Shown: piece after piece, positions 1 through 21,570 of the stretch | How positions within the stretch are numbered: position 1 is the stretch's first letter | Layout: each line of letters starts with the position of its first letter | Source: Utricularia gibba | Taxonomy: Eukaryota > Streptophyta > Magnoliopsida > Lamiales > Lentibulariaceae | Reading direction: 5' to 3' | DNA length: 21,570 nucleotides | NCBI GenBank assembly: GCA_002189035.1 | Contig: NEEC01000289.1 | Coordinates: 1 to 21,570, forward strand | Made by a program: the position numbers and the translations under genes | The notes under the pieces: model-generated | The model's input: the letters and a program-made list of their open reading frames with translations, nothing else | Database searches by the model: none | What the model was told of the DNA's origin: nothing

Positions 1-11
1 GTTTAAATTAC

Positions 12-25
12 GATATCACGTGCAC
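12..25. other. Three overlapping palindromes (GATATC-CACGTG-GTGCAC)
   Basis: In 14 bp, GATATC (12-17), CACGTG (17-22) and GTGCAC (20-25) overlap. Almost every unit keeps this cluster; unit 20 (near 5866) lost two bases of it and the diverged half-unit near 13190 lacks it. CACGTG is the core E-box bound by many bHLH proteins in eukaryotes. Binding here is only a possibility, since a 6-bp site in a satellite may mean nothing. Confidence 0.6.
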
Positions 26-83
26 CCCACATGATTTTTTCAACAACTTACTTTATACTTGAGGAGGCGGTCTTGGGGTGCAC
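20..83. repeat. 10-bp inverted repeat, 44-bp spacer, in half A
   Basis: GTGCACCCCA at 20-29 and TGGGGTGCAC at 74-83 are exact reverse complements separated by 44 bp. The pair recurs in most units. Many copies have CCC or GGG in place of four, in one arm or both, so arm length varies. It could form a hairpin in single-stranded DNA or RNA or hold a two-site protein; no function is shown. Confidence 0.6.
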
Positions 84-140
84 CTAGAACGGGACAAAGG
101 TCAGGTTTGGCTTGCGCCGAGAGTTAGTTGTAGCTCGGAA

Positions 141-146
141 AATAAA
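141..146 (+). other. AATAAA hexamer repeated in many units
   Basis: AATAAA lies at 141-146 in unit 1 and at the same place in many units, followed by GT-rich and TTTATTA sequence. This matches the eukaryotic polyadenylation hexamer, so plus-strand transcripts of the array could in principle be cut once per unit. Some units have lost it (AAAAAAG in units 49, 51, 67 and 68). There is no evidence of transcription, and an A/T-rich hexamer can arise by chance. Confidence 0.25.
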
Positions 147-309
147 GTGATGTATTTATTAACGTTCAGTTTTCGGGGGCTGCCTACATGGTTTTTCAAG
201 GAACAGCTTCTCGTTTTGTGGCGGCCAGTCTCGCTGGGAACTTGGTCCTTGACCCGATTATGTATGGCTCATGAGGTCAACCGGATGCAAATCGATTAAA
301 AAAATGATG

Positions 310-464
310 CTTTTGTTTAAATTACGATATCACGTGCACCCACATGATTTTTTCAACAACTTACTTTATACTTGAGGAGGCGGTCTTGGGTGCACCTAGA
401 ACGGGACAAAGGTCAGGTTTGGCTTGCGCCGAGAGTTAGTTGTAGCTCGGAAAATAAAGTGATG
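310..464 (+). repeat. Half-unit A (about 155 bp)
   Basis: This is the first half of the ancestral dimer, taken here as the stretch from just after one TGATG to the end of the next. It aligns imperfectly to half B: TTTAAATTACG against TTTATTAACG, ACATGATTTTTTCAA against ACATGGTTTTTCAAGG, GAGGCGGTCTTGGG against GTGGCGGCCAGTCTCGCTGGG, TGGCT against TGGCT, and AATAAAGTGATG against AAAAAATGATG. The palindrome cluster and the GTGCACCCCA/TGGGGTGCAC inverted repeat occur only in this half. Confidence 0.8.
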
Positions 465-621
465 TATTTATTAACGTTCAGTTTTGGGGGCTGCCTACAT
501 GGTTTTTCAAGGAACAGCTTCTCGTTTTGTGGCGGCCAGTCTCGCTGGGAACTTGGTCCTTGACCCCGATTCTGTATGGCTCATGAGGTCAACCGGATGG
601 AAATCGATTAAAAAAATGATG
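465..621 (+). repeat. Half-unit B (157 bp)
   Basis: This is the second half of the dimer, aligned to half A through anchors 157 bp apart. It contains GGCGGCCAGTCTCGC and the TTGACC/GGTCAA inverted repeat. The two halves are far more different from each other than B copies are from other B copies. The dimer therefore formed long before the present array was amplified, and the ~312-bp dimer is now the unit being homogenised. Confidence 0.8.
555..592. repeat. Nested inverted repeats in half B (GGTC..GACC and TTGACC..GGTCAA)
   Basis: GGTCCTTGACC at 555-565 has a 4-bp stem and 3-bp loop. TTGACC at 560-565 also pairs with GGTCAA at 587-592 across 21 bp. The two foldings exclude each other because they share GACC. 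Most intact units keep both. The arms are short, so this may be chance; it is listed because it is regular across the array. Confidence 0.4.
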
Positions 622-3600
622 CCTTTGTTTTAAATTACGATATCACGTGCACCCACATGATTTTTTCAACAACTTACTTTATACTTGTGGAGGCGGTCTT
701 GGGGTGCACCTAGAACGGGACAAAGGTCAGGTTTGGCTTGCGCGAGAGTTAGTTGTAGCTCGGAAAATAAAGTGATGTATTTATTAACGTTCAGTTTTGG
801 GGGCTGCCTACATGGTTTTTCAAGGAACAGCTTCTCGTTTTGTGGCGGCCAGTCTCGCTGGGAACTTGGTCCTTGACCCCGATTATGTATGCTCATGAGG
901 TCAACGGATGCAAATTGATTAAAAAAATGATGCTTTTTTTAAATTACGATATCACGTGCACCCACATGATTTTTTCAACAACTTACTTTATACTTGAGGA
1001 GGCGGTCTTGGGGTGCACCTAGAACGGGACAAAGGTCAGGTTTGGCTTGCGCCGAGAGTTAGTTGTAGCTCGGAAAATAAAGTGATGTATTTATTAACGT
1101 TCAGTTTTCGGGGCTGCCTACATGGTTTTTCAAGGAACAGCTTCTCGTTTTGTGGCGGCAGTCTCGCTGGGAACTTGGTCCTTGACCCCGATTGTATGGC
1201 TCATCAACCGGATGGAAATTGATTAAAGAAAATGATGCCTTTTTTAAATTACGATATCACGTGCACCCCATGATTTTTTCAACAACTTACTTTATACTTG
1301 AGGAGGGGTCTTGGGGTGCACCTAGAACGGGACAAAGGTCAGGTTTGGCTTGCGCGAGAGTTAGTTGTAGCTCGGAAAATAAAGTGATGTATTTATTAAC
1401 GTTCAGTTTTGGGGGCTGCCTACATGGTTTTTCAAGGAACAGCTTCTTTTTGTGGCGGCCAGTCTCGCTGGGAACTTGGTCCTTGACCCATTCTGTATGG
1501 CTATGAGGTCAACCGGATGCAAATTGATTAAAAAAAATGATGCGTTTAAATTACGATATCACGTGCACCCCACATGATTTTTTCAACAACTTACTTTATA
1601 CTTGAGGAGGCGGTCTTGGGGTGCACCTAGAACGGGACAAAGGTCAGGTTGGCTTGCGCCGAGAGTTAGTTGTAGCTCGGAAATAAAGTGATGTATTTAT
1701 TAACGTTCAGTTTTTGGGGCTGCCTACATGGTTTTTCAAGGAACAGCTTCTCGTTTTGTGGCGGCCAGTCTCGCTGGGAACTTGGTCCTTGACCCGATTC
1801 TGTATGGCTCATGAGGTCAACCGGATGCAAATCATTAAAAAAATGATGCTTTGTTTAAATTACGATATCACGTGCACCCCATGATTTTTTAACAACTTAC
1901 TTTATACTTGGAGGCGGTCTTGGGTGCACCTAGAACGGGACAAAGGTCAGGTTTGGCTTGCGCCGAGAGTTAGTTGTAGCTCGGAAAATAAAGTGATGTA
2001 TTTATTAACGTTCAGTTTTGGGGGCTGCCTACATGGTTTTTCAAGGAACAGCTTCTCGTTTTGTGGCGGCCAGTCTCGCTGGGAACTTGGTCCTTGACCC
2101 CGATTTGTATGCTCATGAGGTCAACCGGATGCAAATGATTAAAAAAAATGATGCAAATTACGATATCACGTGCACCCCACATGATTTTTTCAACAACTTA
2201 CTTTATACTTGAGGAGGCGGTCTTGGGGTGCACCTAGAACGGGACAAAGGTCAGGTTTGGCTTGCGCCGAGAGTTAGTTGTAGCTCGGAAAATAAAGTGA
2301 TGTATTTATTAACGTTCAGTTTTCGGGGGCTGCCTACATGGTTTTTCAAGGAACAGCTTCTCGTTTTGTGGCGGCCAGTCTCGCTGGGAACTTGGTCCTT
2401 GACCCCGATTATGTATGGCTCATGAGGTCAACCGGATGCAAATCGATTAAAGATGTTTAAATTACGATATCACGTGCACCCCACATGATTTTTTCAACAA
2501 CTTACTTTATACTTGAGGAGGCGGTCTTGGGGTGCACCTAGAACGGGACAAAGGTCAGGTTTGGCTTGCGCCGAGAGTTAGTTGTAGCTCGGAAATAAAG
2601 TGATGTATTTATTAACGTTCAGTTTTGGGGGCTGCTACATGGTTTTTCAAGGAACAGCTTCTCGTTTTGTGGCGGCCAGTCTCGCTGGGAACTTGGTCCT
2701 TGACCCCGATTATGTATGGCTCATGAGGTCAACCGGATGCAAATTGATTAAAAAAAATGATGCCTTTGTTTAAATTACGATATCACGTGCACCCCACATG
2801 ATTTTTTCAACAACTTACTTTATACTTGAGGAGGCGGTCTTGGGTGCACCTAGAACGGGACAAAGGTCAGGTTTGGCTTGCGCCGAGAGTTAGTTGTAGC
2901 TCGGAAAATAAAGTGATGTATTTATTAACGTTCAGTTTTGGGGGCTGCCTACATGGTTTTTCAAGGAACAGCTTCTCGTTTTGTGGCGGCCAGTCTCGCT
3001 GGGAACTTGGTCCTTGACCCCGATTCTGTATGCTCATGAGGTCAACCGGATGCAAATTGATTAAAAAATGATGCCTTTTTAAATTACGATATCACGTGCA
3101 CCCACATGATTTTTTCAACAACTTACTTTATACTTGGGAGGCGGTCTTGGGTGCACCTAGAACGGGACAAAGGTCAGGTTTGGCTTGCGCCGAGAGTTAG
3201 TTGTAGCTCGGAAAATAAAGTGATGTATTTATTAACGTTCAGTTTTTGGGGGCTGCCTACATGGTTTTTCAAGGAACAGCTTCTCGTTTTGTGGCGGCCA
3301 GTCTCGCTGGGAACTTGGTCCTTGACCCCGATTCTGTATGGCTCATGAGGTCAACCGGATGCAAATCGATTAAAAAATGATGCCTTTCTTTAAATTACGA
3401 TATCACGTGCACCCCACATGATTTTTTCAACAACTTTATACTTGAGGAGGCGGTCTTGGGTGCACCTGAACGGGACAAAGGTCAGGTTTGGCTTGCGCCG
3501 AGAGTTAGTTGTAGCCGGAAAATAAAGTGATGTATTTATTAACGTTCAGTTTTCGGGGCTGCCTACATGGTTTTTCAAGGAACAGCTTCTCGTTTTGTGG

Positions 3601-6462
3601 CGGCCAGTCTCGCTGGGAACTTGGTCCTTGACCCGATTCTGTATGGCTCATGAGGTCAACCGGATGGATTAAAAAAATGATGCCTTTTTTAAATTACGAT
3701 ATCACGTGCACCCACATGATTTTTTCAACAACTTACTTTTACTTGAGGAGGCGGTCTTGGGTGCACCTAGAACGGGACAAAGGTCAGGTTTGGCTTGCGC
3801 CGAGAGTTAGTTGTAGCTCGGAAATAAAGTGATGTATTTATTAACGTTCAGTTTTTTGGGGGGCTGCCTACATGGTTTTTCAAGAAACAGCTTCTCGTTT
3901 TGTGGCGGCCAGTCTCGCTGGAACTTGGTCCTTGACCCCGATTGTATTGCTCATGAGGTCAACCGGATGCAAATCGATTAAAAAAATGATGCCTTTGTTT
4001 AAATTACGATATCACGTGCACCCCACATGATTTTTCAACAACTTACTTTATACTTGAGGAGGCGGTCTTGGGGTGCACCTAGAACGGGACAAAGGTCAGG
4101 TTTGGCTTGCGCCGAGAGTTAGTTGTAGCTCGGAAATAAAGTGATGTATTTATTAACGTTCAGTTTTCGGGGGCTGCCTACATGGTTTTTCAAGGAACAG
4201 CTTCTCGTTTGTGGCGGCCAGTCTCGCTGGGAACTTGGTCCTTGACCCCGATTATGTATGGCTCATGAGGTCAACCGGATGCAAATTGATTAAAAAAAAT
4301 GATGCTTTTTGTTTAAATTACGATATCACGTGCACCCCACATGATTTTTTCAACAACTTACTTTATACTTGAGGAGGCGGTCTTGGGGTGCACCTAGAAC
4401 GGGACAAAGGTCAGGTTTGGCTTGCGCCGAGAGTTAGTTGTAGCTCGGAAATAAAGTGATGTATTTATTAACGTTCAGTTTTGGGGGCTGCCTACATGGT
4501 TTTTCAAGGAACAGCTTCTCGTTTTGTGGCGGCCAGTCTCGCTGGGAACTTGGTCCTTGACCCCGATTCTGTATGGCTCATGAGGTCAACCGGATGCAAA
4601 TCGATTAAAAAAATGATGCCTTTTTAAATTACGATATCACGTGCACCCCACATGATTTTTTCAACAACTTACTTTATACTTGTCTTGGGGTGCACCTGAA
4701 CGGGACAAAGGTCAGGTTTGGCTTGCGCCGAGAGTTAGTTGTAGCTCGGAAATAAAGTGATGTATTTATTAACGTTCAGTTTTGGGGGCTGCCTACATGG
4801 TTTTTCAAGGAACAGCTTCTCGTTTTGTGGCGGCCAGTCTCGCTGGGAACTTGGTCCTTGACCCCGATTCTGTATGGCTCATGAGGTCAACCGGATGCAA
4901 ATCGATTAAAAAAATGATGCCTTTTTTAAATTACGATATCACGTGCACCCCACATGATTTTTTCAACAACTTACTTTATACTTGAGGAGGCGGTCTTGGG
5001 GTGCACCTAGAACGGGACAAAGGTCAGGTTTGGCTTGCGCCGAGAGTTAGTTGTAGCTCGGAAATAAAGTGATGTATTTATTAACGTTCAGTTTTGGGGG
5101 CTGCCTACATGGTTTTTCAAGAACAGCTTCTCGTTTTGTGGCGGCCAGTCTCGCTGGGAACTTGGTCCTTGACCCCGATTATGTATGCTCATGAGGTCAA
5201 CCGGATGCAAATCGATTAAAAAATGATGCCTTTGTTTAAATTACGATATCACGTGCACCCCACATGATTTTTCAACAACTTACTTTATACTTGAGGAGGC
5301 GGTCTTTGGGTGCACCTAGAACGGGACAAAGGTCAGGTTTGGCTTGCGCCGAGAGTTAGTTGTAGCTCGGCAAATAAAGTGATGTATTTATTAACGTTCA
5401 GTTTTGGGGGCTGCCTACATGGTTTTTCAAGGAAACAGCTTCTCGTTTTGTGGCGGCCAGTCTCGCTGGAACTTGGTCCTTGACCCCGATTTGTATGGCT
5501 CATGAGGTCAACCGGATGCAAATCGATTAAAAAAATGATGCTTTCTTTAAATTACGATATCACGTGCACCCCACATGATTTTTTCAACAACTTACTTTAT
5601 ACTTGAGGAGGCGGTCTTGGGTGCACCTAGAACGGGACAAAGTCAGGTTTGGCTTGCGCCGAGAGTTAGTTGTAGCTCGGAAAATAAAGTGATGTATTTA
5701 TTAACGTTCAGTTTTCGGGGGCTGCCTACATGGTTTTTCAAGGAACAGCTTCTCGTTTTGTGGCGGCCAGTCTCGCTGGGAACTTGGTCCTGACCCCGAT
5801 TATGTATGGCTCATGAGGTCAACCGGATGCAAATTGATTAAAAAATGATGCGTTTAAATTACGATATCGTGCACCCCACATGATTTTTTCAACAACTTAC
5901 TTTATACTTGAGGAGGCGGTCTTGGGTGCACTAGAACGGGACAAAGGTCAGGTTTGGCTTGCGCCGAGAGTTAGTTGTAGCTCGGAAATAAAGTGATGTA
6001 TTTATTAACGTTCAGTTTTGGGGGCTGCCTACATGGTTTTTCAAGGAACAGCTTCTCGTTTTGTGGCGGCCAGTCTCGCTGGGAACTTGGTCCTTGACCC
6101 CGATTCTGTATGGCTCATGAGGTCAACCGGATGCAAATCGATTAAAAAAATGATGCCTTTGTTTAAATTACGATATCACGTGCACCCACATGATTTTTCA
6201 ACAACTTACTTTATACTTGAGGAGGCGGTCTTGGGTGCACCTGAACGGGACAAAGGTCAGGTTTGGCTTGCGCCGAGAGTTAGTTAGCTCGGAAATAAAG
6301 TGATGTATTTATTAACGTTCAGTTTTGGGGGCTGCCTACATGGTTTTTCAAGGAACAGCTTCTCGTTTTGTGGCGGCCAGTCTCGCTGGGAACTTGGTCC
6401 TTGACCCCATTATTATGCTCATGAGGTCAACCGGATGCAAATGATTAAAAAAATGATGCTTT

Positions 6463-6815
6463 GTTTAAATTACGATATCACGTGCACCCCACATGATTTT
6501 CAACAACTTACTTTATACTTGAGGAGGCGGTCTTGGGGTGCACCTAAACGGGACAAAGGTCAGGTTTGGCTTGCGCCGAGAGTTAGTTGTAGCTCGGAAA
6601 TAAAGTGATGTATTTATTAACGTTCAGTTTTTGGGGGCTGCCTACATGGTTTTTCAAGAACAGCTTCTCGTTTAACGGCGGCCATGGGGGCTGCTGGGAA
6701 CTTCAACCCTTCGATTTGTGGCGGCCAGTCTCGCTGGGAACTTGGTCCTTGACCCCGATTCTGTATGGCTCATGAGGTCAACCGGATGCAAATCGATTAA
6801 AAAAATGATGCCTTT
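6463..6815 (+). repeat. Unit 22, expanded to 353 bp by a local duplication
   Basis: About 41 extra bases lie at 6674-6714, after CTCGTTT. They start with GGCGGCCA and contain CTGCTGGGAACTT, so they are an altered copy of the segment that follows (GGCGGCCAGTCTCGCTGGGAACTT without the middle). The rest of the unit is normal. Confidence 0.8.
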
Positions 6816-7128
6816 GTTTAAATTACGATATCACGTGCACCCCACATGATTTTTTCAACAACTTACTTTATACTTGAGGAGGCGGTCTTGGGTGCACCTA
6901 GAACGGGACAAAGGTCAGGTTTGGCTTGCGCCGAGAGTTAGTTGTAGCTCGGCAAATAAAGTGATGTATTTATTAACGTTCAGTTTTGGGGGCTGCCTAC
7001 ATGGTTTTTCAAGGAACAGCTTCTCGTTTTGTGGCGGCCAGTCTCGCTGGGAACTTGGTCCTTGACCCCGATTCTGTATGGCTCATGAGGTCAACCGGAT
7101 GCAAATCGATTAAAAAAATGATGCCTTT

Positions 7129-7358
7129 GTTTAAATTACGATATCACGTGCACCCCACATGATTTTTTCAACAACTTACTTTATACTTGAGGAGGCGGTC
7201 TTGGGGTGCACCTAGAACGGGACAAAGGTCAGGTTTGGCTTGCGCCGAGAGTTAGTTGTAGCTCGGAAAATAAAGTGATGTATTTATTAACATGTTCAAG
7301 TTTTGGGGGCTGCCTTTACATGAGGTCAACCGGATTCGATTAAAAAAATGATGCCTTT
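7129..7358 (+). repeat. Unit 24, 230 bp, internal deletion in half B
   Basis: The unit is normal up to CTGCCT and then jumps to CATGAGGTCAACC at 7319, losing about 80 bp of half B. CATG is present at both sides of the lost segment in a normal unit (ACATGG and TCATGAGG), so the join sits on a 4-bp microhomology. Small extra bases occur near 7290 (ACATGTTCAAG instead of ACGTTCAG). Confidence 0.85.
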
Positions 7359-7665
7359 GTTTAAATTACGATATCACGTGCACCCACATGATTTTTCAAC
7401 AACTTACTTTATACTTGAGGAGGCGGTCTTGGGTGCACCTAGAACGGGACAAAGGTCAGGTTTGGCTTGCGCGAGAGTTAGTTGTAGCTCGGAAATAAAG
7501 TGATGTATTTATTAACGTTCAGTTTTGGGGGCTGCCTACATGGTTTTTCAAGGAACAGCTTTCGTTTTGTGGCGGCCAGTCTCGCTGGGAACTTGGTCCT
7601 TGACCCCGATTCTGTATGGCTCATGAGGTCAACCGGATGAAATCGATTAAAAAAATGATGCCTTT

Positions 7666-7934
7666 GATATCACGTGCACCCCATGATTTTTTCAACAACT
7701 TACTTTATACTTGAGGAGGCGGTCTTGGGTGCACCTCGGGACAAAGGTCAGGTTTGGCTTGCGCCGAGAGTTAGTTGTAGCTCGGAAAATAAAGTGATGT
7801 ATTTATTAACGTTCAGTTTGGGGGCTGCCTACATGGTTTTTCAAGGAACAGCTTCTCGTTTGTGGCGGCCAGTCTCGCTGGAACTTGGTCCCCCCGATCT
7901 CATGAGGTCAACCGGATGCAAATTGATTACTTTT
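7666..7934 (+). repeat. Unit 26, 269 bp, several small deletions
   Basis: The unit starts at GATATC because the GTTTAAATTAC start is missing. Bases are also lost after CACCT (near 7737), around the TTGACC segment (near 7890) and at the A-tract and TGATG end (near 7929). The losses are scattered rather than one clean deletion. Confidence 0.8.
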
Positions 7935-8242
7935 TTTAAATTACGATATCACGTGCACCCCACATGATTTTTTCAACAACTTACTTTATACTTGAGGAGG
8001 CGGTCTTGGGGTGCACCTAGAACGGGACAAAGGTCAGGTTTGGCTTGCGCCGAGAGTTAGTTGTAGCTCGGCAAATAAAGTGATGTATTTATTAACGTTC
8101 AGTTTTGGGGGCTGCCTACATGGTTTTTCAAGGAACAGCTTCTCGTTTTGTGGCGGCCAGTCTCGCTGGGAACTTGGTCCTTGACCCCGATTCTGTATGG
8201 CTCATGAGGTCAACCGGATGCAAATCGATTAAAAAAATGATG

Positions 8243-8506
8243 AAATTACGATATCACGTGCACCCCACATGATTTTTTAACAACTTACTTTATACTTGAG
8301 GAGGCGGTCTTGGGGTGCACCTAGAACGGGACAAAGGTCAGGTTTGGCTTGCGCCGAGAGTTAGTTGTAGCTCGATAAAGTGATGTATTTATTAACGTTC
8401 ACTGCCTACATGGTTTTTCACAGCTTCTCAGTCTCGCTGGGAACTTGGTCCTTGACCCCGATTTGTATGCTCATGAGGTCAACCGGATTATTAAAAAAAT
8501 GATGCC
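8243..8506 (+). repeat. Unit 28, 264 bp, deletions in both halves
   Basis: The segment AGTTTTGGGGG is missing, giving GTTCACTGCC near 8397. The AAGGAA and TTTTGTGGCGGC segments are lost around 8420-8430, and CTCGGAAAATAAAG is reduced to CTCGATAAAG near 8372. The GTTCACTGCC join also occurs in unit 35. Confidence 0.8.
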
Positions 8507-9439
8507 TTTAAATTACGATATCACGTGCACCCCACATGATTTTTTCAACAACTTACTTTATACTTGAGGAGGCGGTCTTGGGGTGCACCTAGAACGGGAC
8601 AAAGGTCAGGTTTGGCTTGCGCCGAGAGTTAGTTGTAGCTCGGAAAATAAAGTGATGTATTTATTAACGTTCAGTTTTGGGGGCTGCCTACATGGTTTTT
8701 CAAGGAACAGCTTCTCGTTTTGTGGCGGCCAGTCTCGCTGGGAACTTGGTCCTTGACCCCGATTATGTATGCTCATGAGGTCAACCGGATGCAAATCGAT
8801 TAAAAAAATGATGCCTTTGTTTAAATTACGATATCACGTGCACCCACATGATTTTTTCAACAACTTACTTTATACTTGAGGAGGCGGTCTTGGGGTGCAC
8901 CTAGAACGGGACAAAGGTCAGGTTTGGCTTGCGCCGAGAGTTAGTTGTAGCTCGGAAAATAAAGTGATGTATTTATTAACGTTCAGTTTTGGGGGCTGCC
9001 TACATGGTTTTTCAAGGAACAGCTTCTCGTTTTGTGGCGGCCAGTCTCGCTGGAAACTTGGTCCTTGACCCCGATTCTGTATGCTCATGAGGTCAACCGG
9101 ATGCAAATCGATTAAAAAAATGATGCCTTTGTTTAAATTACGATATCACGTGCACCCCACATGATTTTTTCAACAACTTACTTTATACTTGAGGAGGCGG
9201 TCTTGGGGTGCACCTAGAACGGGACAAAGGTCAGGTTTGGCTTGCGCCGAGAGTTAGTTGTAGCTCGGAAAATAAAGTGATGTATTTATTAACGTTCAGT
9301 TTTTGGGGGCTGCCTACATGGTTTTTCAAGGAACAGCTTCTCGTTTTGTGGCGGCCAGTCTCGCTGGGAACTTGGTCCTTGACCCCGATTCTGTATGCTC
9401 ATGAGGTCAACCGGATGCAAATTGATTAATGATGCCTTT
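8507..9439 (+). repeat. Units 29-31, regular copies inside the centre
   Basis: Three consecutive units of 312, 312 and 309 bp are close to consensus. They show that the disturbed centre is not uniformly bad and that rearranged pieces are interspersed with good copies. Confidence 0.95.
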
Positions 9440-9930
9440 GTTTAAATTACGATATCACGTGCACCCACATGATTTTTTCAACAACTTACTTTATACTTGA
9501 GGAGGCGGTCTTGGGTGCACCTAGAACGGGACAAAGGTCAGGTTTGGCTTGCGCCGAGAGTTAGTTGTAGCTCGGAAATAAAGTGATGTATTTATTAACG
9601 TTCAGTTTTTTAAATTAATATCACAACTGCACCCGTTTTGGAGGAGCGGTCTTGGGGTGCACCTAGAACGGGACAAAGGTCAGGTTTGGCTTGCGCCAAC
9701 GTTGGTCCTTGGCTTGAAATATTAGTCATGAGGTCAACCGGATGCAAATCGATTAAAAAAATGATGCAACGTTCAGTTTTGATAGTGGTTTTTCACTCCA
9801 GTACATGGTTTTTCAAGGAACAGCTTCTCGTTTTGTGGCGGCCAGTCTCGCTGGGAACTTGGTCCTTGACCCCGATTATGTATGCTCATGAGGTCAACCG
9901 GATGCAAATCGATTAAAAAATGATGCCTTT
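9440..9930 (+). repeat. 491-bp composite of about three half-units with A/B switches
   Basis: The first piece (9440-9606) is half A plus the start of B. At about 9607 the start of B runs into a damaged half-A start (TTTAAATTAATATCAC), continues as half A to GCGCC at 9697, then returns to B sequence (TTGGTCCTTG, then CATGAGGTCAACC) and ends in TGATG at 9766. What follows is not a half-A start but AACGTTCAGTTTTG, which belongs after the TGATG of half A, so B is followed by B (9767-9930). The total is close to three half-units, an odd number. The second B copy has extra bases near 9782-9803, including a partial repeat of GGTTTTTCA. Confidence 0.75.
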
Positions 9931-10547
9931 TTTAAATTACGATATCACGTGCACCCCACATGATTTTTTCAACAACTTACTTTATACTTGAGGAGGCGGT
10001 CTTGGGTGCACCTGAACGGGACAAAGGTCAGGTTTGGCTTGCGCCGAGAGTTAGTTGTAGCTCGGAAAATAAAGTGATGTATTTATTAACGTTCAGTTTT
10101 GGGGGCTGCCTACATGGTTTTTCAAGGACAGCTTCTCGTTTTGTGGCGGCCAGTCTCGCTGGGAACTTGGTCCTTGACCCCGATTATGTATGGCTCATGA
10201 GGTCAACCGGATGCAAATCGATTAAAAAAATGATGCCTTTGTTTAAATTACGATATCACGTGCACCCACATGATTTTTTCAACAACTTACTTTATACTTG
10301 AGGAGGCGGTCTTGGGGTGCACCTAGAACGGGACAAAGGTCAGGTTTGGCTTGCGCCGAGAGTTAGTTGTAGCTCGGAAAATAAAGTGATGTATTTATTA
10401 ACGTTCAGTTTTTGGGGGCTGCCTACATGGTTTTTCAAGGAACAGCTTCTCGTTTTGTGGCGGCCAGTCTCGCTGGGAACTTGGTCCTGACCCCGATTCT
10501 GTATGGCTCATGAGGTCAACCGGATGCAAATCGATTAAAAAAATGAT
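9931..10547 (+). repeat. Units 33-34, regular copies
   Basis: Two units of 310 and 307 bp match the consensus apart from homopolymer changes. The end of unit 34 lacks the GCCTTTGTTT segment, so ATGAT joins AAATTACG directly at about 10547. Confidence 0.9.
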
Positions 10548-10795
10548 AAATTACGATATCACGTGCACCCCACATGATTGCTTTATACTTGTGGAGGCGG
10601 TCTTGGGGTGCACGAACGGGACAAAGGTCAGGTTTGGCTTGCGCCGAGTTAGTTGTATCGTAAAGTGATGTATTATTAACGTTCACTGCCTACATGGTTT
10701 TTCAAGGAACAGCTTCTCGTTTTGTGGCGGCCAGTCTCGCTGGGAACTTGGTCCTTGAATTATGTATGCTCATGAGGTCAACCGGATGCACCTTT
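10548..10795 (+). repeat. Unit 35, 248 bp, multiple deletions
   Basis: Segments are lost after ACATGATT (near 10580), in CACCTAGAACGG (near 10613), in the CTCGGAAAATAAAG region (near 10658), at GTTCACTGCC (near 10680), after CCTTGA (near 10758) and at the A-tract and TGATG end (near 10790). The GTTCACTGCC join and the damaged AATAAAG region resemble unit 28, about 2.3 kb upstream. Confidence 0.8.
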
Positions 10796-11737
10796 GTTTA
10801 AATTACGATATCACGTGCACCCCACATGATTTTTTCAACAACTTACTTTATACTTGAGGAGGCGGTCTTGGGGTGCACCTAGAACGGGACAAAGGTCAGG
10901 TTTGGCTTGCGCCGAGAGTTAGTTGTAGCTCGGAAAATAAAGTGATGTATTTATTAACGTTCAGTTTTGGGGGCTGCCTACATGGTTTTTCAAGGAACAG
11001 CTTCTCGTTTTGTGGCGGCCAGTCTCGCTGGGAACTTGGTCCTTGACCCCGATTATGTATTGCTCATGAGGTCAACCGGATGCAAATCGATTAAAAAAAT
11101 GATGCCTTTGTTTAAATTACGATATCACGTGCACCCCACATGATTTTTTCAACAACTTGCTTTATACTTGAGGAGGCGGTCTTGGGGTGCACCTAGAACG
11201 GGACAAAGGTCAGGTTTGGCTTGCGCCGAGAGTTAGTTGTAGCTCGGAAAATAAAGTGATGTATTTATTAACGTTCAGTTTTCGGGGCTGCCTACATGGT
11301 TTTTCAAGGAACAGCTTCTCGTTTTGTGGCGGCCAGTCTCGCTGGGAACTTGGTCCTTGACCCCGATTCTGTATGGCTCATGAGGTCAACCGGATGCAAA
11401 TCGATTAAAAAAAATGATGCCTTTGTTTAAATTACGATATCACGTGCACCCCACATGATTTTTTCAACAACTTACTTTATACTTGAGGAGGCGGTCTTGG
11501 GGTGCACCTAGAACGGGACAAAGGTCAGGTTTGGCTTGCGCCGAGAGTTAGTTGTAGCTCGGAAAATAAAGTGATGTATTTATTAACGTTCAGTTTTGGG
11601 GGCTGCCTACATGGTTTTTCAAGGAACAGCTTCTCGTTTTGTGGCGGCCAGTCTCGCTGGGAACTTGGTCCTTGACCCCGATTATGTATGCTCATGAGGT
11701 CAACCGGATGCAAATCGATTAAAAAAATGATGCCTTT
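10796..11737 (+). repeat. Units 36-38, regular copies
   Basis: Three near-consensus units of 314, 315 and 313 bp. Unit 36 carries the TATTGCTC variant that is common in the right block, and unit 37 carries the TTTCGGGG variant that is common in the left block. Confidence 0.95.
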
Positions 11738-12017
11738 GTTTAAATTACGATATCACGTGCACCCCACATGATTTTTTCAACAACTTACTTTATACTTGAG
11801 GAGGCGGTCTTGGGGTGCACCTAGAACGGGACAAAGGTCAGGTTTGGCTTGCGCCGAGAGTTAGTTGTAGCTCGGAAAAAAAGTGATGTATTTATTAACG
11901 TTCAGACATGGTTTTTCAAGGAACAGCTTCTCGTTTTGTGGCGGCCAGTCTCGCTGGAACTTGGTCCTCCCCGATTAATGGCTCATGAGGTCAACCGGAT
12001 GCAAATGATTTGATGCC
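11738..12017 (+). repeat. Unit 39, 280 bp, shortened
   Basis: TTCAG joins ACATGG directly near 11905, losing the T-tract, G-tract and CTGCCT segment. Bases are also missing in the TTGACC region near 11970 and in the A-tract and T-rich end near 12010, so the next unit starts at GATATC. Confidence 0.8.
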
Positions 12018-12241
12018 GATATCACGTGCACCCCACATGATTTTTTCAACAACTGCGGTCTTGGGGTGCACAGAACGGGACAAAGGTCAGGTTTGGCTTG
12101 CGCCGAGAGTTAGTTGTAAAAATAAAGTGATGTATTTATTAACGTTCAGCTTCTCTTCGTGTGGCGGCCAGTCTCGCTGGGAACTTGGTCCTTGACCCCG
12201 ATTATGTATGGCTCATGAGGTCAACCGGATGCAAATCCTTT
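12018..12241 (+). repeat. Unit 40, 224 bp, two larger deletions
   Basis: In half A, CAACAACT joins GCGGTCTTGGGG near 12055, losing about 20 bp. In half B, GTTCAG joins CTTCTC at 12149, losing about 43 bp; CAG stands at both edges of the lost segment in a normal unit, a 3-bp microhomology. The unit also lacks the ATCGATTAAAAAAATGATG end. Confidence 0.8.
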
Positions 12242-12532
12242 GTTTAAATTACGATATCACGTGCACCCCACATGATTTTTTCAACAACTTACTTTATACT
12301 TGGGAGGCGGTCTTGGGCACCTAGAACGGGACAAAGGTCAGGTTTGGCTTGCGCGAGAAGTTGTAGCTCGGAAAATAAAGTGATGTATTTATTAACGTTC
12401 AGTTTTGGGGGGCTGCCTACATGGTTTTTCAAGGAACAGCTTCTCGTTTTGTGGCGGCCAGTCTCGCTGGGAACTTGGTCCTTGACCCCGATTCTGTATG
12501 GCTCATGAGGTCAACCGGATGCAAATCGATTA
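12242..12532 (+). repeat. Unit 41, 291 bp, nearly complete, cut at its end
   Basis: The unit follows the consensus with small losses near 12317 (GGGCACC) and 12353 (GCGCGAGAAG). It stops at CGATTAA, which joins CCCCACATGA of the next unit at 12533. The A-tract, TGATGCC and the whole start of the following half A, with its palindrome cluster, are missing. Confidence 0.8.
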
Positions 12533-12936
12533 ACCCCACATGATTTTTTCAAATGAGGCGGTCTTGGGGTTTGAGAACGGTACAAAGGTGCACCCCACAT
12601 TGGGACAAAGGTCATTACAGGTTTGAGGAGAATCAAGAGTGTATGCGTTCAGTTTTGGGGGCTGCCTACATGGTTTTTCAAGGAACAGCTTCTCGTTTTG
12701 TGGCGGCCAGTCTCGCTGGGAACTTGGTCCTTGACCCAGATTTGGCTCGATGAGAGTCAGTTGTTTTTCTCGGAAATAAAGTGATGTATTTATTAACGTT
12801 CAGTTTTGGGGGCTGCCTACATGGTTTTTCAAGGAACAGCTTCTCGTTTTTGGCGGCCAGTCTCGCTGGGAACTTGGTCCTTGACCCCGATTCTGTATGG
12901 CTCATGAGGTCAACCGGATGCAAATCGGATGCCTTT
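12533..12936 (+). repeat. 404-bp composite: scrambled A, B switching to A, then B
   Basis: The first part (12533-12649) is scrambled half-A sequence in which GTGCACCCCACAT appears again near 12589, after the G-rich segment, out of normal order. A good half-B start follows from 12650. At about 12738-12748, after TTGACCC, the sequence passes through TTTGGCTCGATGAGAG into half-A sequence (AGTTG, CTCGGAAATAAAGTGATG). Half B then starts again at about 12786 and continues to 12936. The switch lies at TGGCT, one of the anchors shared by A and B at 157-bp spacing. Confidence 0.7.
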
Positions 12937-13172
12937 GTTTAAATTACGATATCACGTGCACCCACATGATTTTTTCAACAACTTACTTTATACTTGAGGA
13001 GGCGGTCTTGGGTGCACCTGAACGGGACAAAGGTCAGGTTTGGCTTGCGCCGAGAGTTAGTTGTAGCTCGGAAAATAAAGTGATGTATTTATTAACGTTC
13101 AGTTTTGGGGGCTGCCTACATGGTTTTTCAAGGAACAGCTTCTCGTTTTTGTGCGGCCAGATCTCGCTGGGA
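12937..13172 (+). repeat. Unit 43a, cut after CTCGCTGGGA
   Basis: Half A and the first part of half B are normal up to about 13130. The sequence then shows small errors (TTTTTGTGCGGCCAGATCTCGCTGGGA) and stops in the middle of half B, missing the TTGACC/GGTCAA part and the A-tract end. It is followed directly by the diverged half-unit. Confidence 0.75.
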
Positions 13173-13451
13173 TGCTCTTTGTCAAATTACGATATGATTT
13201 TACTCCCAGTTTTTGGGGGATGCAACATTACTTTTACCTTGTGGAACATGGCGTCTTGGGTGTGTCCAGAACTCGCAAACATTTTTTCAACAGATTCTTG
13301 TTGGCTCGGAGGTCATTGGGGACGTTCGGTTTTGGGGGCTGCCTACATGGTTTTTCAAGGAACAGCTTCTCGTTTTGTGGCGGCCAGTCTCGCTGGGAAC
13401 TTGGTCCTTGACCCCGATTCTGTATGCTCATGAGGTCAACCGGATGCCTTT
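13173..13451 (+). repeat. Unit 43b, strongly diverged half A followed by a normal half B
   Basis: From 13173 to about 13322 the sequence still resembles half A but with many substitutions: TGCTCTTTGTCAAATTACG at the start, CATTACTTTTACCTTGTGG against ACTTACTTTATACTTGAGG, GGCGTCTTGGGTG against GGCGGTCTTGGGGTG, CCAGAACTCGCAAA against CTAGAACGGGACAAA, and GTTGGCTCGGA against GTTGTAGCTCGGA. It lacks the CACGTGCACC segment. From about 13321 (GACGTTCGG) normal half B resumes. It is the only half-unit in the window that differs mainly by substitution. Confidence 0.7.
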
Positions 13452-13694
13452 GTTTAAATTACGATATCACGTGCACCCCACATGATTTTTTCAACAACTG
13501 AGGAGGCGGTCTTGGGGTGCACCTTAAAGTTAAAAATATGACGTTCAGTTTTTGGGGGCTGCCACATGGTTTTTCAAGGAACAGCTTCTCGTTTTGTGGC
13601 GGCCAGTCTCGCTGGGAACTTGGTCCTTGACCCCGATTCTGTATGGCTCATGAGGTCAACCGGATGCAAATCGATTAAAAAAAATGATGCCTTT
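13452..13694 (+). repeat. Unit 44, 243 bp, half A mostly lost
   Basis: Half A runs to GGGGTGCACC at 13522 with a loss after CAACAACT. A short A/T-rich stretch (13523-13540) then leads to GACGTTCAG of half B. The purine-rich middle of half A, GCGCCGAG and AATAAAG, is absent. Half B is normal. Confidence 0.8.
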
Positions 13695-13914
13695 GTTTAA
13701 CTATTACGATTTTTTCAACAACTTACTTTATACTTGAGGAGGCGGTCTTGGGGTGCACCTAGAACGGGACAAAGGTCAGGTTTGGCTTGCGCCGAGAGTT
13801 AGTTGTAGCTCGGAAAATAAAGTGATGTATTTATTAACGTTCAGTTTTGGGGGCTGCCTACATGGTTTTTCAAGGAACAGCTTCTCGATAACTTGTGGAG
13901 CGTCTTTGGATTTT
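13695..13914 (+). repeat. Unit 45, 220 bp, half B switching into A-like sequence
   Basis: Half A is near normal apart from a loss at its start. Half B is normal up to CTTCTCG at 13887 and then continues as ATAACTTGTGGAGCGTCTTTGG, which resembles the ATACTTGTGGAGGCGGTCTTGG of half A (the TTGTGG form is seen in units 3 and 35). It then passes into the TTTTGTTTAAATTACG start of the next unit. The B-to-A jump is at matching positions of the two halves. Confidence 0.65.
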
Positions 13915-14102
13915 GTTTAAATTACGATATCACGTGCTGATTTTTTCAACGGGACAAGAACGGTCAGGTTTGGCTTGCGCCGAGAGTTAGTTGTAGCACG
14001 GACAAATGGCGGCCAGTCTCGCTGGGAACTTGGTCCTTGACCCCGATTCTGTATGCTCATGAGGTCAACCGGATGCAAATCGATTAAAAAAATGATGCCT
14101 TT
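13915..14102 (+). repeat. Unit 46, 188 bp, scrambled
   Basis: After CACGTG the sequence goes to CTGATTTTTTCAAC and directly to GGGACAAGAACGGTCAGG, so the order of AGAACGG and GGGACAA is disturbed and the G-rich segment is lost. After GTAGCACGGACAAA it jumps to TGGCGGCCAG, skipping the first third of half B. The rest of half B is intact. Confidence 0.7.
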
Positions 14103-14233
14103 CTTTTTGGGATATACATGGTTTTTCACTCGGACAGCACTGATTTTTTCTCGCTGGGAACTTGGTCCTTGACCCGATTATGTATGCTCATGAGGTCAAC
14201 CGGATGCAAATCGATTAAAAAAATGATGCCTTT
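14103..14233 (+). repeat. Unit 47, 131 bp, half B only
   Basis: After the ATGATGCC end of unit 46 the sequence continues as TTTTTGGGATATACATGGTTTTTCA, which is the start of half B, not of half A. The piece lacks the AAGGAACAGC to GGCGGCC segment, then runs normally from TCTCGCTGGG to TGATGCC. A lone half B between full units is a second case of B followed by B. Confidence 0.75.
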
Positions 14234-16392
14234 GTTTAAATTACGATATCACGTGCACCCCACATGATTTTTTCAACAACTCTTATACTTGAGGAGGCGG
14301 TCTTGGGGTGCACCTAGAACGGGACAAAGGTCAGGTTTGGCTTGCGCCGAGAGTTAGTTGTAGCTCGGAAAATAAAGTGATGTATTTATTAACGTTCAGT
14401 TTTCGGGGCTGCCTACATGGTTTTTCAAGGAACAGCTTCTCGTTTTGTGGCGGCCAGTCTCGCTGGAACTTGGTCCCCCGATTCTGTATGGCTCATGAGG
14501 TCAACCGGATGGAAATTGATTAAAAAAATGATGCCTTTTTTAAATTACGATATCACGTGCACCCACATGATTTTTTCAACAACTTACTTTATACTTGAGG
14601 AGGCGGTCTTGGGGTGCACCTAGAACGGGACAAAGGTCAGGTTTGGCTTGCGCGAGAGTTAGTTGTAGCTCGGAAAAAAGTGATGTATTTATTAACGTTC
14701 AGTTTTCGGGGCTGCCTACATGGTTTTTCAAGGAACAGCTTCTCGTTTTGTGGCGGCCAGTCTCGCTGGGAACTTGGTCCTTGACCCCGATTCTGTATGC
14801 TCATGAGGTCAACCGGATGCAAATCGATTAAAGAAAATGATGCCTTTGTTTAAATTACGATATCACGTGCACCCCACATGATTTTTTCAACAACTTACTT
14901 TATACTTGAGGAGGCGGTCTTGGGGTGCACCTAGAACGGGACAAAGGTCAGGTTTGGCTTGCGCCGAGAGTTAGTTGTAGCTCGGAAAATAAAGTGATGT
15001 ATTTATTAACGTTCAGTTTTGGGGGCTGCCTACATGGTTTTTCAAGGAACAGCTTCTCGTTTTGTGGCGGCCAGTCTCGCTGGGAACTTGGTCCTACCCC
15101 GATTCTGTATGGCTCATGAGGTCAACCGGATGCAAAGATTAAAGAAAATGATGCCTTTGTTTAAATTACGATATCACGTGCACCCCACATGATTTTTTCA
15201 ACAACTTACTTTATACTTGAGGAGGCGGTCTTGGGTGCACCTAGAACGGGACAAAGGTCAGGTTTGGCTTGCGCCGAGAGTTAGTTGTAGCTCGGAAAAA
15301 AGTGATGTATTTATTAACGTTCAGTTTTGGGCTGCCTACATGGTTTTTCAAGGAACAGCTTCTCGTTTTGTGGCGGCCAGTCTCGCTGGGAACTTGGTCC
15401 TCCCCGATTCTGTATGGCTCATGAGGTCAACCGGATGGAAATCGATTAAAAAAAATGATGCCTTTTTTAAATTACGATATCACGTGCACCCCACATGATT
15501 TTTTCAACAACTTGCTTTATACTTGGGAGGCGGTCTTGGGGTGCACCTGAACGGGACAAAGGTCAGGTTTGGCTTGCGCCGAGAGTTAGTTGTAGCTCGG
15601 AAAATAAAGTGATGTATTTATTAACGTTCAGTTTTTGGGGGCTGCCTACATGGTTTTTCAAGGAACAGCTTCTCGTTTTGTGGCGGCCAGTCTCGCTGGG
15701 AACTTGGTCCTTGACCCGATTCTGTATGGCTCATGAGGTCAACCGGATGGAAATCGATTAAAGAAAATGATGCCTTTCTTTAAATTACGATATCACGTGC
15801 ACCCCACATGATTTTTTCAACAACTTACTTTATACTTGAGGAGGCGGTCTTGGGGTGCACCTAGAACGGGACAAAGGTCAGGTTTGGCTTGCGCCGAGAG
15901 TTAGTTGTAGCTCGGAAAATAAAGTGATGTATTTATTAACGTTCAGTTTTTGGGGGCTGCCTACATGGTTTTTCAAATTCTCGTTTTGTGGCGGCCAGTC
16001 TCGCTGGGAACTTGGTCCTTGACCCGATTATGTATTGCTCATGAGGTCAACCGGATGCAAATTGATTAAAAAAAATGATGCCTTTGTTTAAATTACGATA
16101 TCACGTGCACCCCACATGATTTTTTCAACAACTTACTTTATACTTGAGGAGGCGGTCTTGGGGTGCACCTAGAACGGGACAAAGGTCAGGTTTGGCTTGC
16201 GCCGAGAGTTAGTGTAGCTCGGAAAATTATGTATTTATTAACGTTCAGTTTTGGGGGCTGCCTACATGGTTTTTCAAGGAACAGCTTCTCGTTTTGTGGC
16301 GGCCGTCTCGCTGGGAACTTGGTCCTTGACCCCGATTCTGTATGCTCATGAGGTCAACCGGATGCAAATCGATTAAAGAAAATGATGCCTTT

Positions 16393-16972
16393 GTTTAAAT
16401 TACGATATCACGTGCACCCCACATGATTTTTTCAACAACTTACTTTATACTTGAGGAGGCGGTCTTGGGGTGCAAATCAGGTTTGGCTTGCGCCGAGAGT
16501 TAGTTGTAGCTCGGAAAATAAAGTGATGTATTTATTAACGTTCAGTTTTTGGGGGCTGTGGTTTTTCAAGGAACAGCTTCTCGTTTTGTGGCGGCCAGTC
16601 TCGCTGGGAACTGGTCCTGACCCCGATTATGTATGCTCATGAGGTCAACCGGATTTAAAAAAATGATGCCTTTTTATTACGATATCACGTGCACCCCACA
16701 TGATTTTTTCAACAACTTGCTTTATACTTGAGGAGGCGGTCTTGGGGTGCACCTGGAACGGGACAAAGGTCAGGTTTGGCTTGCGCCGAGAGTTAGTTGT
16801 AGCTCGGAAATAAAGTGATGTATTTATTAACGTTCAGTTTTTGGGGGCTTTGGTTTTTCAAGGAACAGCTTCTCGTTTTGTGGCGGCCAGTCTCGCTGGG
16901 AACTTGGTCCTTGACCCCGATTATGTATTGCTCATGAGGTCTGCAAATTGATTAAAAAAAAATGATGCCTTT
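16393..16972 (+). repeat. Units 55-56, adjacent copies both lacking CCTACA
   Basis: Unit 55 (279 bp) loses CCTAGAACGGGACAAAGG near 16474 and the CCTACA segment near 16558. Unit 56 (301 bp) lacks nearly the same CCTACA segment near 16849. Adjacent copies with nearly the same loss suggest one was copied from the other. Confidence 0.7.
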
Positions 16973-19900
16973 GTTAAATTACGATATCACGTGCACCCCA
17001 CATGATTTTTTCAACAACTTACTTTATACTTGAGGAGCGGTCTTGGGGTGCACCTAGAACGGGACAAAGGTCAGGTTTGGCTTGCGCCGAGAGTTAGTTG
17101 TAGCTCGGAAAATAAAGTGATGTATTTATTAACGTTCAGTTTTGGGGGCTGCCTACATGGTTTTTCAAGGAACAGCTTCTCGTTTTGTGGCGGCCAGTCT
17201 CGCTGGGAACTTGGTCCTTGACCCGATTATGTATTGCTCATGAGGTCAACCGGATGCAAATCGATTAAAAAAAATGATGCCTTTGTTTAAATTACGATAT
17301 CACGTGCACCCCACATGATTTTTTCAACAACTTACTTTATACTTGAGGAGGCGGTCTTGGGGTGCACCTAGAACGGGACAAAGGTCAGGTTTGGCTTGCG
17401 CGAGAGTTAGTTGTAGCTCGGAAAATAAAGTGATGTATTTATTAACGTTCAGTTTTGGGGGCTGCCTACATGGTTTTTCAAGGAACAGCTTCTCGTTTTG
17501 TGGCGGCCAGTCTCGCTGGGAACTTGGTCCTTGACCCCGATTCTGTATGCTCATGAGGTCAACCGGATGCAAATCGATTAAAAAAATGATGCCTTTGTTT
17601 AAATTACGATATCACGTGCACCCCACATGATTTTTTCAACAACTTACTTTATACTTGAGGAGGCGGTCTTGGGTGCACCTAGAACGGGACAAAGGTCAGG
17701 TTTGGCTTGCGCCGAGAGTTAGTTGTAGCTCGGCAAATAAAGTGATGTATTTATTAACGTTCAGTTTTTGGGGGCTGCCTACATGGTTTTTCAAGGAACA
17801 GCTTCTCGTTTTGTGGCGGCCAGTCTCGCTGGGAACTTGGTCCTTGACCCCGATTCTGTATGGCTCATGAGGTCAACCGGATGGAAATCGATTAAAAAAA
17901 TGATGCTTTAAATTACGATATCACGTGCACCCCACATGATTTTTTCAACAACTTACTTTATACTTGAGGAGGCGGTCTTGGGGTGCACCTAGAACGGGAC
18001 AAAGGTCAGGTTTGGCTTGCGCCGAGAGTTAGTTGTAGCTCGGAAATAAAGTGATGTATTTATTAACGTTCAGTTTTTGGGGGCTGCCTACATGGTTTTT
18101 CAAGGAACAGCTTCTCGTTTTGTGGCGGCCAGTCTCGCTGGGAACTTGGTCCTTGACCCGATTATGTATTGCTCATGAGGTCAACCGGATGCAAATTGAT
18201 TAAAAAAAATGATGCCTTTTTTAAATTACGATATCACGTGCACCCCACATGATTTTTTCAACAACTTACTTTATACTTGAGGAGGCGGTCTTGGGTGCAC
18301 CTAGAACGGGACAAAGGTCAGGTTTGGCTTGCGCGAGAGTTAGTTGTAGCTCGGAAAATAAAGTGATGTATTTATTAACGTTCAGTTTTGGGGCTGCCTA
18401 CATGGTTTTTCAAGGAACAGCTTCTCGTTTTGTGGCGGCCAGTCTCGCTGGGAACTTGGTCCTTGACCCCGATTATGTATTGCTCATGAGGTCAACCGGA
18501 TGCAAATTGATTAAAAAAAATGATGCCTTTGTTAAATTACGATATCACGTGCACCCCACATGATTTTTTCAACAACTTACTTTATACTTGAGGAGGCGGT
18601 CTTGGGGTGCACCTAGAACGGGACAAAGGTCAGGTTTGGCTTGCGCGAGAGTTAGTTGTAGCTCGGAAAATAAAGTGATGTATTTATTAACGTTCAGTTT
18701 TGGGGGCTGCCTACATGGTTTTTCAAGGAACCTTCTCGTTTTGTGGCGGCCAGTCTCGCTGGGAATTGGTCCTTGACCCCGATTCTGTATGCTCATGAGG
18801 TCAACCGGATGCAAATCGATTAAAGAAAATGATGCCTTTTGTTTAAATTACGATATCACGTGCACCCCACATGATTTTTTCAACAACTTACTTTATACTT
18901 GAGGAGGCGGTCTTGGGGTGCACCTAGAACGGGACAAAGGTCAGGTTTGGCTTGCGCCGAGAGTTAGTTGTAGCTCGGAAAATAAAGTGATGTATTTATT
19001 AACGTTCAGTTTTTGGGGGCTGCCTACATGGTTTTTCAAGGAACAGCTTCTCGTTTTGTGGCGGCCAGTCTCGCTGGGAACTTGGTCCTTGACCCCGATT
19101 CTGTATGCTCATGAGGTCAACCGGATGCAAATCGATTAAAAAAATGATGCCTTTGTTTAAATTACGATATCACGTGCACCCCACATGATTTTTTCAACAA
19201 CTTACTTATACTTGAGGAGCGGTCTTGGGTGCACCTAGAACGGACAAAGGTCAGGTTTGGCTTGCGCGAGAGTTAGTTGTAGCTCGGAAAATAAAGTGAT
19301 GTATTTATTAACGTTCAGTTTTTGGGGCTGCCTACATGGTTTTTCAAGGAACAGCTTCTCGTTTTGTGGCGGCCAGTCTCGCTGGGAACTTGGTCCTGAC
19401 CCCGATTCTGTATGGCTCATGAGGTCAACCGGATGGAAATTCGATTAAAAAAATGATGCCTTGTTTAAATTACGATATCACGTGCACCCCACATGATTTT
19501 TTCAACAACTTACTTTATACTTGAGGAGGCGGTCTTGGGTGCACCGAACGGGACAAAGGTCAGGTTTGGCTTGCGGAGAGTTAGTTGTAGCTCGGAAAAT
19601 AAAGTGATGTATTTATTAACGTTCAGTTTTGGGGGCTGCCTACATGGTTTTCAAGGAACAGCTTCTCGTTTGTGGCGGCCAGTCTCGCTGGGAACTTGGT
19701 CCTTGACCCCGATTCTGTATGGCTCATGAGGTCAACCGGATGCAAATTGATTAAAAAAATGATGCCTTTGTTTAAATTACGATATCACGTGCACCCCACA
19801 TGATTTTTTCAACAACTTACTTTATACTTGAGGAGGCGGTCTTGGGGTGCACCTAGAACGGGACAAAGGTCAGGTTTGGCTTGCGGAGAGTTAGTTGTAG

Positions 19901-21327: not shown

Positions 21328-21570
21328 GTTTAAATTACGATATCACGTGCACCCCACATGATTTTTTCAACAACTTACTTTATACTTGAGGAGGCGGTCT
21401 TGGGTGCACCTAGAACGGGACAAAGGTCAGGTTTGGCTTGCGCCGAGAGTTAGTTGTAGCTCGGAAATTAAGTGATGTATTTATTAACGTTCAGTTTTGG
21501 GGCTGCCTACATGGTTTTTCAAGGAACAGCTTCTCGTTTTGTGGCGCCAGTCTCGCTGGGAACTTGGTCC
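21328..21570 (+). repeat. Unit 71, cut by the window end
   Basis: The last 243 bp follow the consensus from GTTTAAATTACG to AACTTGGTCC and stop with the window. The array therefore continues to the right. On the left the window begins at a unit start, so it very probably continues there too. Confidence 0.95.

What the first reader, a model, noticed from the sequence alone, without database searches (positions are those of the whole stretch)
1..314. The 312-bp unit is an old dimer of ~155- and 157-bp halves
ACATG (29/186), TGGCT (108/265) and TGATG (148/305) recur at exactly 157 bp, each inside longer imperfect matches such as ACATGATTTTTTCAA/ACATGGTTTTTCAAGG. The present unit thus arose by doubling of a ~157-bp monomer, followed by divergence and amplification of the pair. 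About 157 bp is close to the DNA wrapped by one nucleosome, so each half could hold one nucleosome; that last step is inference.
Basis: seen in the sequence. Interest (0 to 1): 0.7.

Follow-up and report, generated by a model that had tools for sequence, protein, structure and literature searches.

The report
Bladderwort satellite made of paired halves
A tandem repeat of about 314 bases that fills this stretch of what is most likely a bladderwort genome is an ancient fused pair of 157-base units, and elsewhere in the genome the pair was multiplied again into larger repeating blocks, much as in the repeats of human centromeres.

Summary
Confirmed, with one correction. The window is a whole 21.6-kb contig of tandem satellite. 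Lag 157 is the best circular lag (70 of 157 pairs equal; mean of lags 25%); 0 of 2000 shuffles reach the gapped A/B alignment, 88 of 153 identical. The first unit alone: 79 of 157, 0 of 5000 shuffles. A subfamily about 71% identical, closing a 3.7-Mb telomere-bearing contig, shows the same doubling. A tree separates 17 A from 17 B halves, so the doubling predates the subfamilies. A and B probes hit 17,406 and 17,571 places, about 5.4 Mb. Three other contigs carry higher-order blocks of 2, 5 and 7 dimers. COX1 points to Utricularia or a Genlisea section; size and contig number (recalled) to U. gibba, whose putative centromeric regions are said in print to lack satellites. One nucleosome per half is untested; a 10-bp WW test gave no support. 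A centromeric or pericentromeric role is inferred, about 50%.

The parts
1..21570 (+). Whole contig C162: one head-to-tail array of the ~314-bp dimeric satellite
   Evidence: TRF 1-21570, period 312; contig identity and length
1..314 (+).
   Evidence: 79 of 157 positions equal at lag 157, 0 of 5000 shuffles
144..300 (+). First complete A half, 157 bp (starts AAAGTGATG); phase chosen from the A/B alignment, so the cut point is a convention
   Evidence: alignment; coordinates
301..455 (+).
   Evidence: alignment; coordinates
7133..13918 (+). Stretch in which several units are cut, jumbled or of odd length; probably poor consensus sequence, not tested against reads
   Evidence: odd-length units listed; TRF rows

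Best explanation
The window is satellite DNA of a bladderwort, most likely Utricularia gibba. Its 314-bp unit is an A+B dimer: a ~157-bp monomer was duplicated, the two copies diverged to about 57% identity (gapped), and from then on the pair was copied together (shown by alignment, tree and counts). The pair exists in at least two deep subfamilies, and on some contigs it was copied again in blocks of 2, 5 and 7 dimers that are 99% identical to each other, so that amplification is recent (pattern shown; unequal exchange, rolling-circle re-insertion or break-induced replication as the cause is inference). The arrays most likely form, or flank, the centromere on part of the chromosomes, packed in nucleosomes (inference; about 50%). 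The confidence given is for the dimer origin and the higher-order re-amplification.
For: A/B alignment and lag tests. Same half-period in the subfamily at the end of C213, about 71% identical to the window's consensus (312 of 441): 100 of 141 identical between its halves, 0 of 1000 shuffles, best circular lag 156. The best circular lag is 154-158 in 17 of 17 unit-type consensuses from 10 contigs. Tree: a branch of 0.49 with support 1.000 parts the 17 A from the 17 B halves. The majority base agrees between A and B at 86 of 164 columns, spread over the length: 24, 23, 21 and 18 per quarter. A and B probes hit 17,406 and 17,571 places, reversed-pattern control 0. In 23 held stretches A to B is 156 bp and B to A 157 bp at the median, with 3 same-type neighbours at half distance. 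Higher-order repeats (substitutions only): C7 lag 2 99.5% v 88.6-88.9% at odd lags, C11 lag 5 99.2% v 89-92%, C8 lag 7 99.4% v 91-93%. Position: C213 has telomere repeats at one end and the array at the other; seven sampled pieces between 3.500 and 3.705 Mb are 86-100% covered by the satellite.
Against: Of six consensuses given an ungapped lag test, four had 0 of 2000 shuffles at or above, C137 9 and C7_1 17; the local A/B test gave 22 of 2000. The 17 consensuses are related, so they are not 17 independent tests. No array of single 157-bp monomers was seen in the 23 stretches, so the ancestral state is not observed; TRF did find one local two-copy repeat of 151 bp in C11 (L025), which looks like a rare exchange between A and B. 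For function: C3 and C4 carry telomere repeats at both ends, and the listings of exact A and B probe copies, which run in contig order, start at C7, so the satellite is not at every centromere as assembled. No WW signal.
Confidence: 0.93

Rival explanations
1. Same satellite, but its place and role are not centromeric: it is a distal or knob-like heterochromatin block on some chromosomes.
For: Apparently complete chromosomes C3 and C4 show no exact probe copy in the listings. A whole chromosome here can be as short as 3.85 Mb (C4), so C213 (3.70 Mb) could be nearly a whole chromosome with the array near its far end.
Against: In 13 telomeric contig ends no 314-bp satellite was found, but only about 0.8-3.5 kb beyond the telomere repeats was read. 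C496, 0.70 Mb with one telomere, ends in a different, 343-bp satellite, which fits an arm ending at a centromere, though for another family.
Confidence: 0.35
2. The A/B likeness is due to a few shared binding-site blocks kept or acquired by selection, not to descent from one monomer.
For: Columns invariant in all 34 halves fall from 12, 10 and 7 to 3 over the four quarters; the longest shared blocks (TGATG, ACATG.TTTTT) lie in the first half of each unit half.
Against: Majority-equal columns are spread fairly evenly (24, 23, 21, 18), and matches are colinear over halves of equal length.
Confidence: 0.05
3. The half-period is a chance resemblance picked out of many possible lags.
For: The local alignment test alone was reached by 22 of 2000 shuffles; two of six single consensuses are only moderately significant.
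Against: 0 of 2000, 0 of 1000 and 0 of 5000 in the main tests and in the C213 subfamily.
Confidence: 0.01
4. The array is contamination or an assembly artefact rather than nuclear DNA of the plant.
For: Of 17 satellite-bearing contigs whose length was printed, 16 are under 66 kb; the middle of the window is jumbled.
Against: A related subfamily closes the 3.7-Mb contig C213, which starts with plant-type telomere repeats.
Confidence: 0.03

Closest known systems
Primate alpha satellite (SF1/SF2 A/B dimers and their higher-order repeats)
   Same: Alternating diverged A and B monomers of about nucleosome length; the dimer re-amplified in near-identical higher-order blocks; diverged subfamilies (passages of PMC8997354 and PMC8122249).
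   Different: No sequence comparison was made. Halves here are about 57% alike: below the ~70% given for alpha dimers in PMC8122249, within the 50-70% given in a passage of PMC8997354. No monomeric arrays were seen; a CENP-B box was not looked for; centromere protein binding is unknown.
Plant satellites of 150-180 and 320-360 bp (one and two nucleosome lengths)
   Same: 157 bp is in the one-nucleosome class and 314 bp close to the two-nucleosome class (PMC7290377 passages); maize CentC is 156 bp (PMC8122249 passages).
   Different: 314 bp lies slightly under 320-360 bp. Here the doubling is shown in the sequence and is followed by blocks of 2, 5 and 7 dimers.
Drosophila Responder satellite
   Same: Satellite unit that is a dimer of two related monomers (PMC8122249 passages).
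   Different: 120-bp monomers sharing 84% identity; here 157 bp and about 57%.

Membership tests
Satellite DNA (long tandem array) | Head-to-tail copies over many kb, high copy number | tested here: met
   Whole 21.6-kb window; 17,406 and 17,571 probe places genome-wide
Dimeric satellite (A/B monomers) | Unit made of two homologous halves in alternation | tested here: met
   exceptions: 3 same-type neighbours, one 151-bp two-copy repeat
Higher-order-repeat satellite | Blocks of several diverged units repeated at much higher identity | tested here: met
   Clear in 3 of 12 stretches measured: C7 x2, C11 x5, C8 x7; an alternating 2-unit pattern in C10 left and a weaker one in C18; not in the window, where lags 1-12 are 99.1-99.3%
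Centromeric satellite | Bound by CENH3 / located at the primary constriction | not testable with these tools
   No chromatin or FISH data; position on C213 only suggestive
Centromeric satellite | Present on all or most chromosomes | tested here: inconclusive
   Present at the end of C213; exact A and B probe listings, in contig order, start at C7, so none in C1-C6, which include C3 and C4 with telomeres at both ends; diverged copies there not excluded
Subtelomeric satellite | Next to telomere repeats | tested here: not met
   0 of 13 telomeric ends, but only about 0.8-3.5 kb beyond the repeats was read; satellite further in is not excluded
Nucleosome-phasing satellite | Phased nucleosomes or 10-bp WW periodicity | tested here: inconclusive
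   WW power not above shuffles in 5 of 5 consensuses tested; a weak predictor; no MNase data
Known structured RNA or 5S rDNA unit | Match to an Rfam family | tested here: not met
   0 Rfam matches at E up to 1 in window 1-2200

The most novel reading that the evidence does not exclude
U. gibba, whose putative centromeric regions are described as lacking satellites, in fact mixes chromosome classes: some with alpha-satellite-like centromeres built on this A/B dimer and its higher-order repeats (others on a 344-bp family), and some, such as C3 and C4, with satellite-free centromeres. That would let one small genome test what a satellite adds to a centromere.
Probability: 0.35. Interest if true: 0.75.

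Novelty: new member of a known kind. Interest (0 to 1): 0.5.

Why it matters
U. gibba is a reference case for a stripped-down plant genome, and a paper on it speaks of the absence of satellite repeats in its putative centromeric regions (PMC8333044 passages). Here one satellite makes up at least about 5% of the assembly (arithmetic), with a three-level structure (157-bp monomer, 314-bp dimer, blocks of 2, 5 or 7 dimers) comparable to alpha satellite. If some centromeres carry it and others do not, this is a compact system for asking why satellites gather at centromeres. The kind of repeat itself is ordinary.

Tried and rejected
Known RNA families: none in window 1-2200. Whether the 344-, 343-, 355- and 536-bp satellites at other contig ends are relatives or also dimers: 15 of 16 local alignments to the main and C213 consensuses did not exceed the best of 60 shuffles; the 16th (536-bp v C213, plus strand) scored 26 against 25 over 13 bp and is taken as chance. 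No clear half-period: in the 344- and 343-bp consensuses the half lag is not among the six best; in the 355-bp one lag 177 is joint second (106 matches) with lag 125, just above lags 150, 39 and 149; in the 536-bp one lag 262 (half is 268) ties with lag 7. Nucleosome rotational signal: none. Unit cutting by a fuzzy 30-mer failed for several arrays and was replaced. Literature: the listings for U. gibba with centromere and satellite (12 papers), with tandem repeat and PacBio (14 listed), for Lentibulariaceae (15 of 1,980 listed) and for Utricularia with CENH3 (2) showed no title or abstract start that reports a 312-314-bp satellite; a search for satellite DNA with 314 bp, 157 bp and centromere gave 0 papers. 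Of these I opened passages only, in PMC8333044, PMC10663240 and PMC6982007; for other points passages of PMC11688529, PMC8997354, PMC8122249 and PMC7290377. The 2017 genome paper is not held, so what it says of satellites is known only through PMC8333044, and its assembly figures are recalled. Species: the contiguous COX1 dicysteine is shared by Utricularia and Genlisea sect. Recurvatae (PMC11688529 passages); gibba rests on assembly size and contig number, recalled.

Full report
What the window is. The 21,570-bp window is the whole of contig C162 in a 100.1-Mb, 516-contig assembly. It is one head-to-tail satellite array. Contig C515 carries a plant-type mitochondrial COX1 with two contiguous cysteines (LLLLCCSAL); this pair is reported for the Utricularia species studied and for one section of Genlisea (PMC11688529 passages).

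The observation. The three 5-mer pairs are at the stated places, 157 bp apart. In window 1-314, 79 of 157 positions agree at lag 157 (0 of 5000 shuffles). The window autocorrelation peaks at 157 between lags 20 and 285. Of 64 anchored units, 51 of 285-325 bp went into a consensus and 13 were dropped. It is 314 bp long; lag 157 is the best circular lag, 70 of 157 pairs being equal; the gapped A/B alignment has 88 of 153 identities and 0 of 2000 shuffles reach its score; the local test is weaker, 22 of 2000. The consensus halves are 157 + 157. The first complete pair in the window is 157 + 155, in keeping with the many small deletions of this contig.

Independent support. Contig C213 (3.70 Mb) begins with telomere repeats and ends in a related satellite whose consensus is about 71% identical to the window's. 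Seven pieces sampled between 3.500 and 3.705 Mb are 86-100% satellite. Its consensus shows the same doubling: 100 of 141 identities, 0 of 1000 shuffles, best circular lag 156. Among 17 unit-type consensuses from 10 contigs the best circular lag is 154-158 in 17 of 17; they are related, not independent, and of six tested by ungapped lag two are weaker (9 and 17 of 2000 shuffles). A FastTree of the 34 halves has a branch of 0.49 substitutions per site, support 1.000, between the 17 A and the 17 B halves: doubling came first, subfamilies later. As a control, four other long-period consensuses of the genome (344, 343, 355 and 536 bp) show no clear half-period and no credible likeness to this family; the closest case is the 355-bp one, where the half lag is joint second.

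Genome-wide picture. An A-specific probe hits 17,406 places and a B-specific probe 17,571 (up to 3 mismatches; reversed controls 0). At ~311 bp per unit this is about 5.4 Mb. It is likely a lower bound: on 23 held stretches of 150,749 bp in all, nearly all satellite and so about 485 units by length, the probes found 400 A and 376 B sites. A to B is 156 bp and B to A 157 bp at the median; 3 same-type neighbours at half distance were seen, and TRF found one 151-bp two-copy repeat. So no array of single monomers appeared in these stretches. I saw the family on 33 contigs in listings that are cut short; of the 17 whose lengths were printed, 16 are under 66 kb and one is C213.

Higher-order repeats. 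Twelve stretches were measured, counting substitutions only. In the window, lags of 1-12 units are all 99.1-99.3% identical: no higher order here. Three stretches have a clear block structure: C7 repeats two dimers (99.5% v 88.6-88.9% at odd lags), C11 five (99.2% v 89-92%) and C8 seven (99.4% v 91-93%). C10 left alternates with a period of two and C18 does so weakly; the rest show no clear block. The history is thus 157-bp monomer, 314-bp dimer, and in places blocks of 2, 5 or 7 dimers.

How it likely works. Amplification of the pair and of blocks of pairs follows the general pattern of satellite turnover by unequal exchange or break-induced replication (PMC8997354 passages); which process acted here is not shown. 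The best-supported role is centromeric or pericentromeric chromatin on some chromosomes, at about 50%: one chromosome-scale contig ends in it opposite its telomere, and 0 of 13 telomeric ends have it within the 0.8-3.5 kb read beyond the telomere repeats. Against a universal role, C3 and C4, with telomere repeats at both ends, have no exact A or B probe copy, judging from listings in contig order that start at C7; diverged copies are not excluded. One nucleosome per half is plausible by length, since satellite units of one or two nucleosome lengths predominate (PMC8997354 passages), but WW dinucleotides show no signal near 10 bp (426, 394, 152, 382 and 168 of 500 shuffles reached the five observed values).

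Compared with what is known. It works like alpha satellite, with A/B dimers and higher-order blocks. It is a new member of a known kind; no sequence relation to alpha satellite was tested. What is notable is the host: a paper on U. gibba speaks of the absence of satellite repeats in its putative centromeric regions, citing the genome paper (PMC8333044 passages), which itself is not held. My listings showed no report of this satellite, but most of those papers were not opened. Both statements can hold if the satellite-bearing regions are the ones that did not assemble into the large contigs.

Noticed in passing
C7 (L052), C11:1-16000 (L010, L011), C8 (L068): Higher-order repeats of 2, 5 and 7 dimers, 99.2-99.5% identical at the block period against 89-93% otherwise.
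   Followed up: yes
C244 right end (L031), C496 right end (L047), C411 left end (L035): A second satellite family of 343-355 bp, not alignable to the 314-bp family: arrays at the ends of C244 and C496, 2.8 copies near the end of C411; a probe hits 2,907 places.
   Followed up: partly
C505 left end (L019, L051): A 535-536-bp tandem repeat at 99% identity.
   Followed up: no
window 7133-13918: Several units are cut, jumbled or odd in length between two cleaner flanks; looks like poor consensus sequence in the middle of the contig.
   Followed up: partly
L025 7441-7736 (C11): A local two-copy repeat of 151 bp spanning B end and A start, as if A and B had exchanged once.
   Followed up: partly
314-bp consensus, positions 16-25 and 70-79 (B half): Perfect 10-bp inverted repeat GTGCACCCCA/TGGGGTGCAC; 11 of 500 base shuffles have one at least as long within 120 bp. 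The same stretch holds ATCACGTG, which resembles the yeast CDEI site (recalled, not tested).
   Followed up: partly
C1, C2, C69, C409, C505, C515: Contig lengths are exact multiples of 2,500 (8,500,000; 6,192,500; 25,000; 2,492,500; 3,452,500; 267,500), as if cut; the last 2 kb of C1 and C2 show no telomere repeats.
   Followed up: no
26-base A motif, genome-wide: One place had the CpG cytosine changed against 31 with a nearby G changed, many of the latter copies of one C11 block variant; possibly low CpG decay or tight homogenisation.
   Followed up: no
C213:3500001-3502000 (L064): Mosaic stretch with matches up to 91% to the window's subfamily and up to 97% to the C213 type.
   Followed up: no
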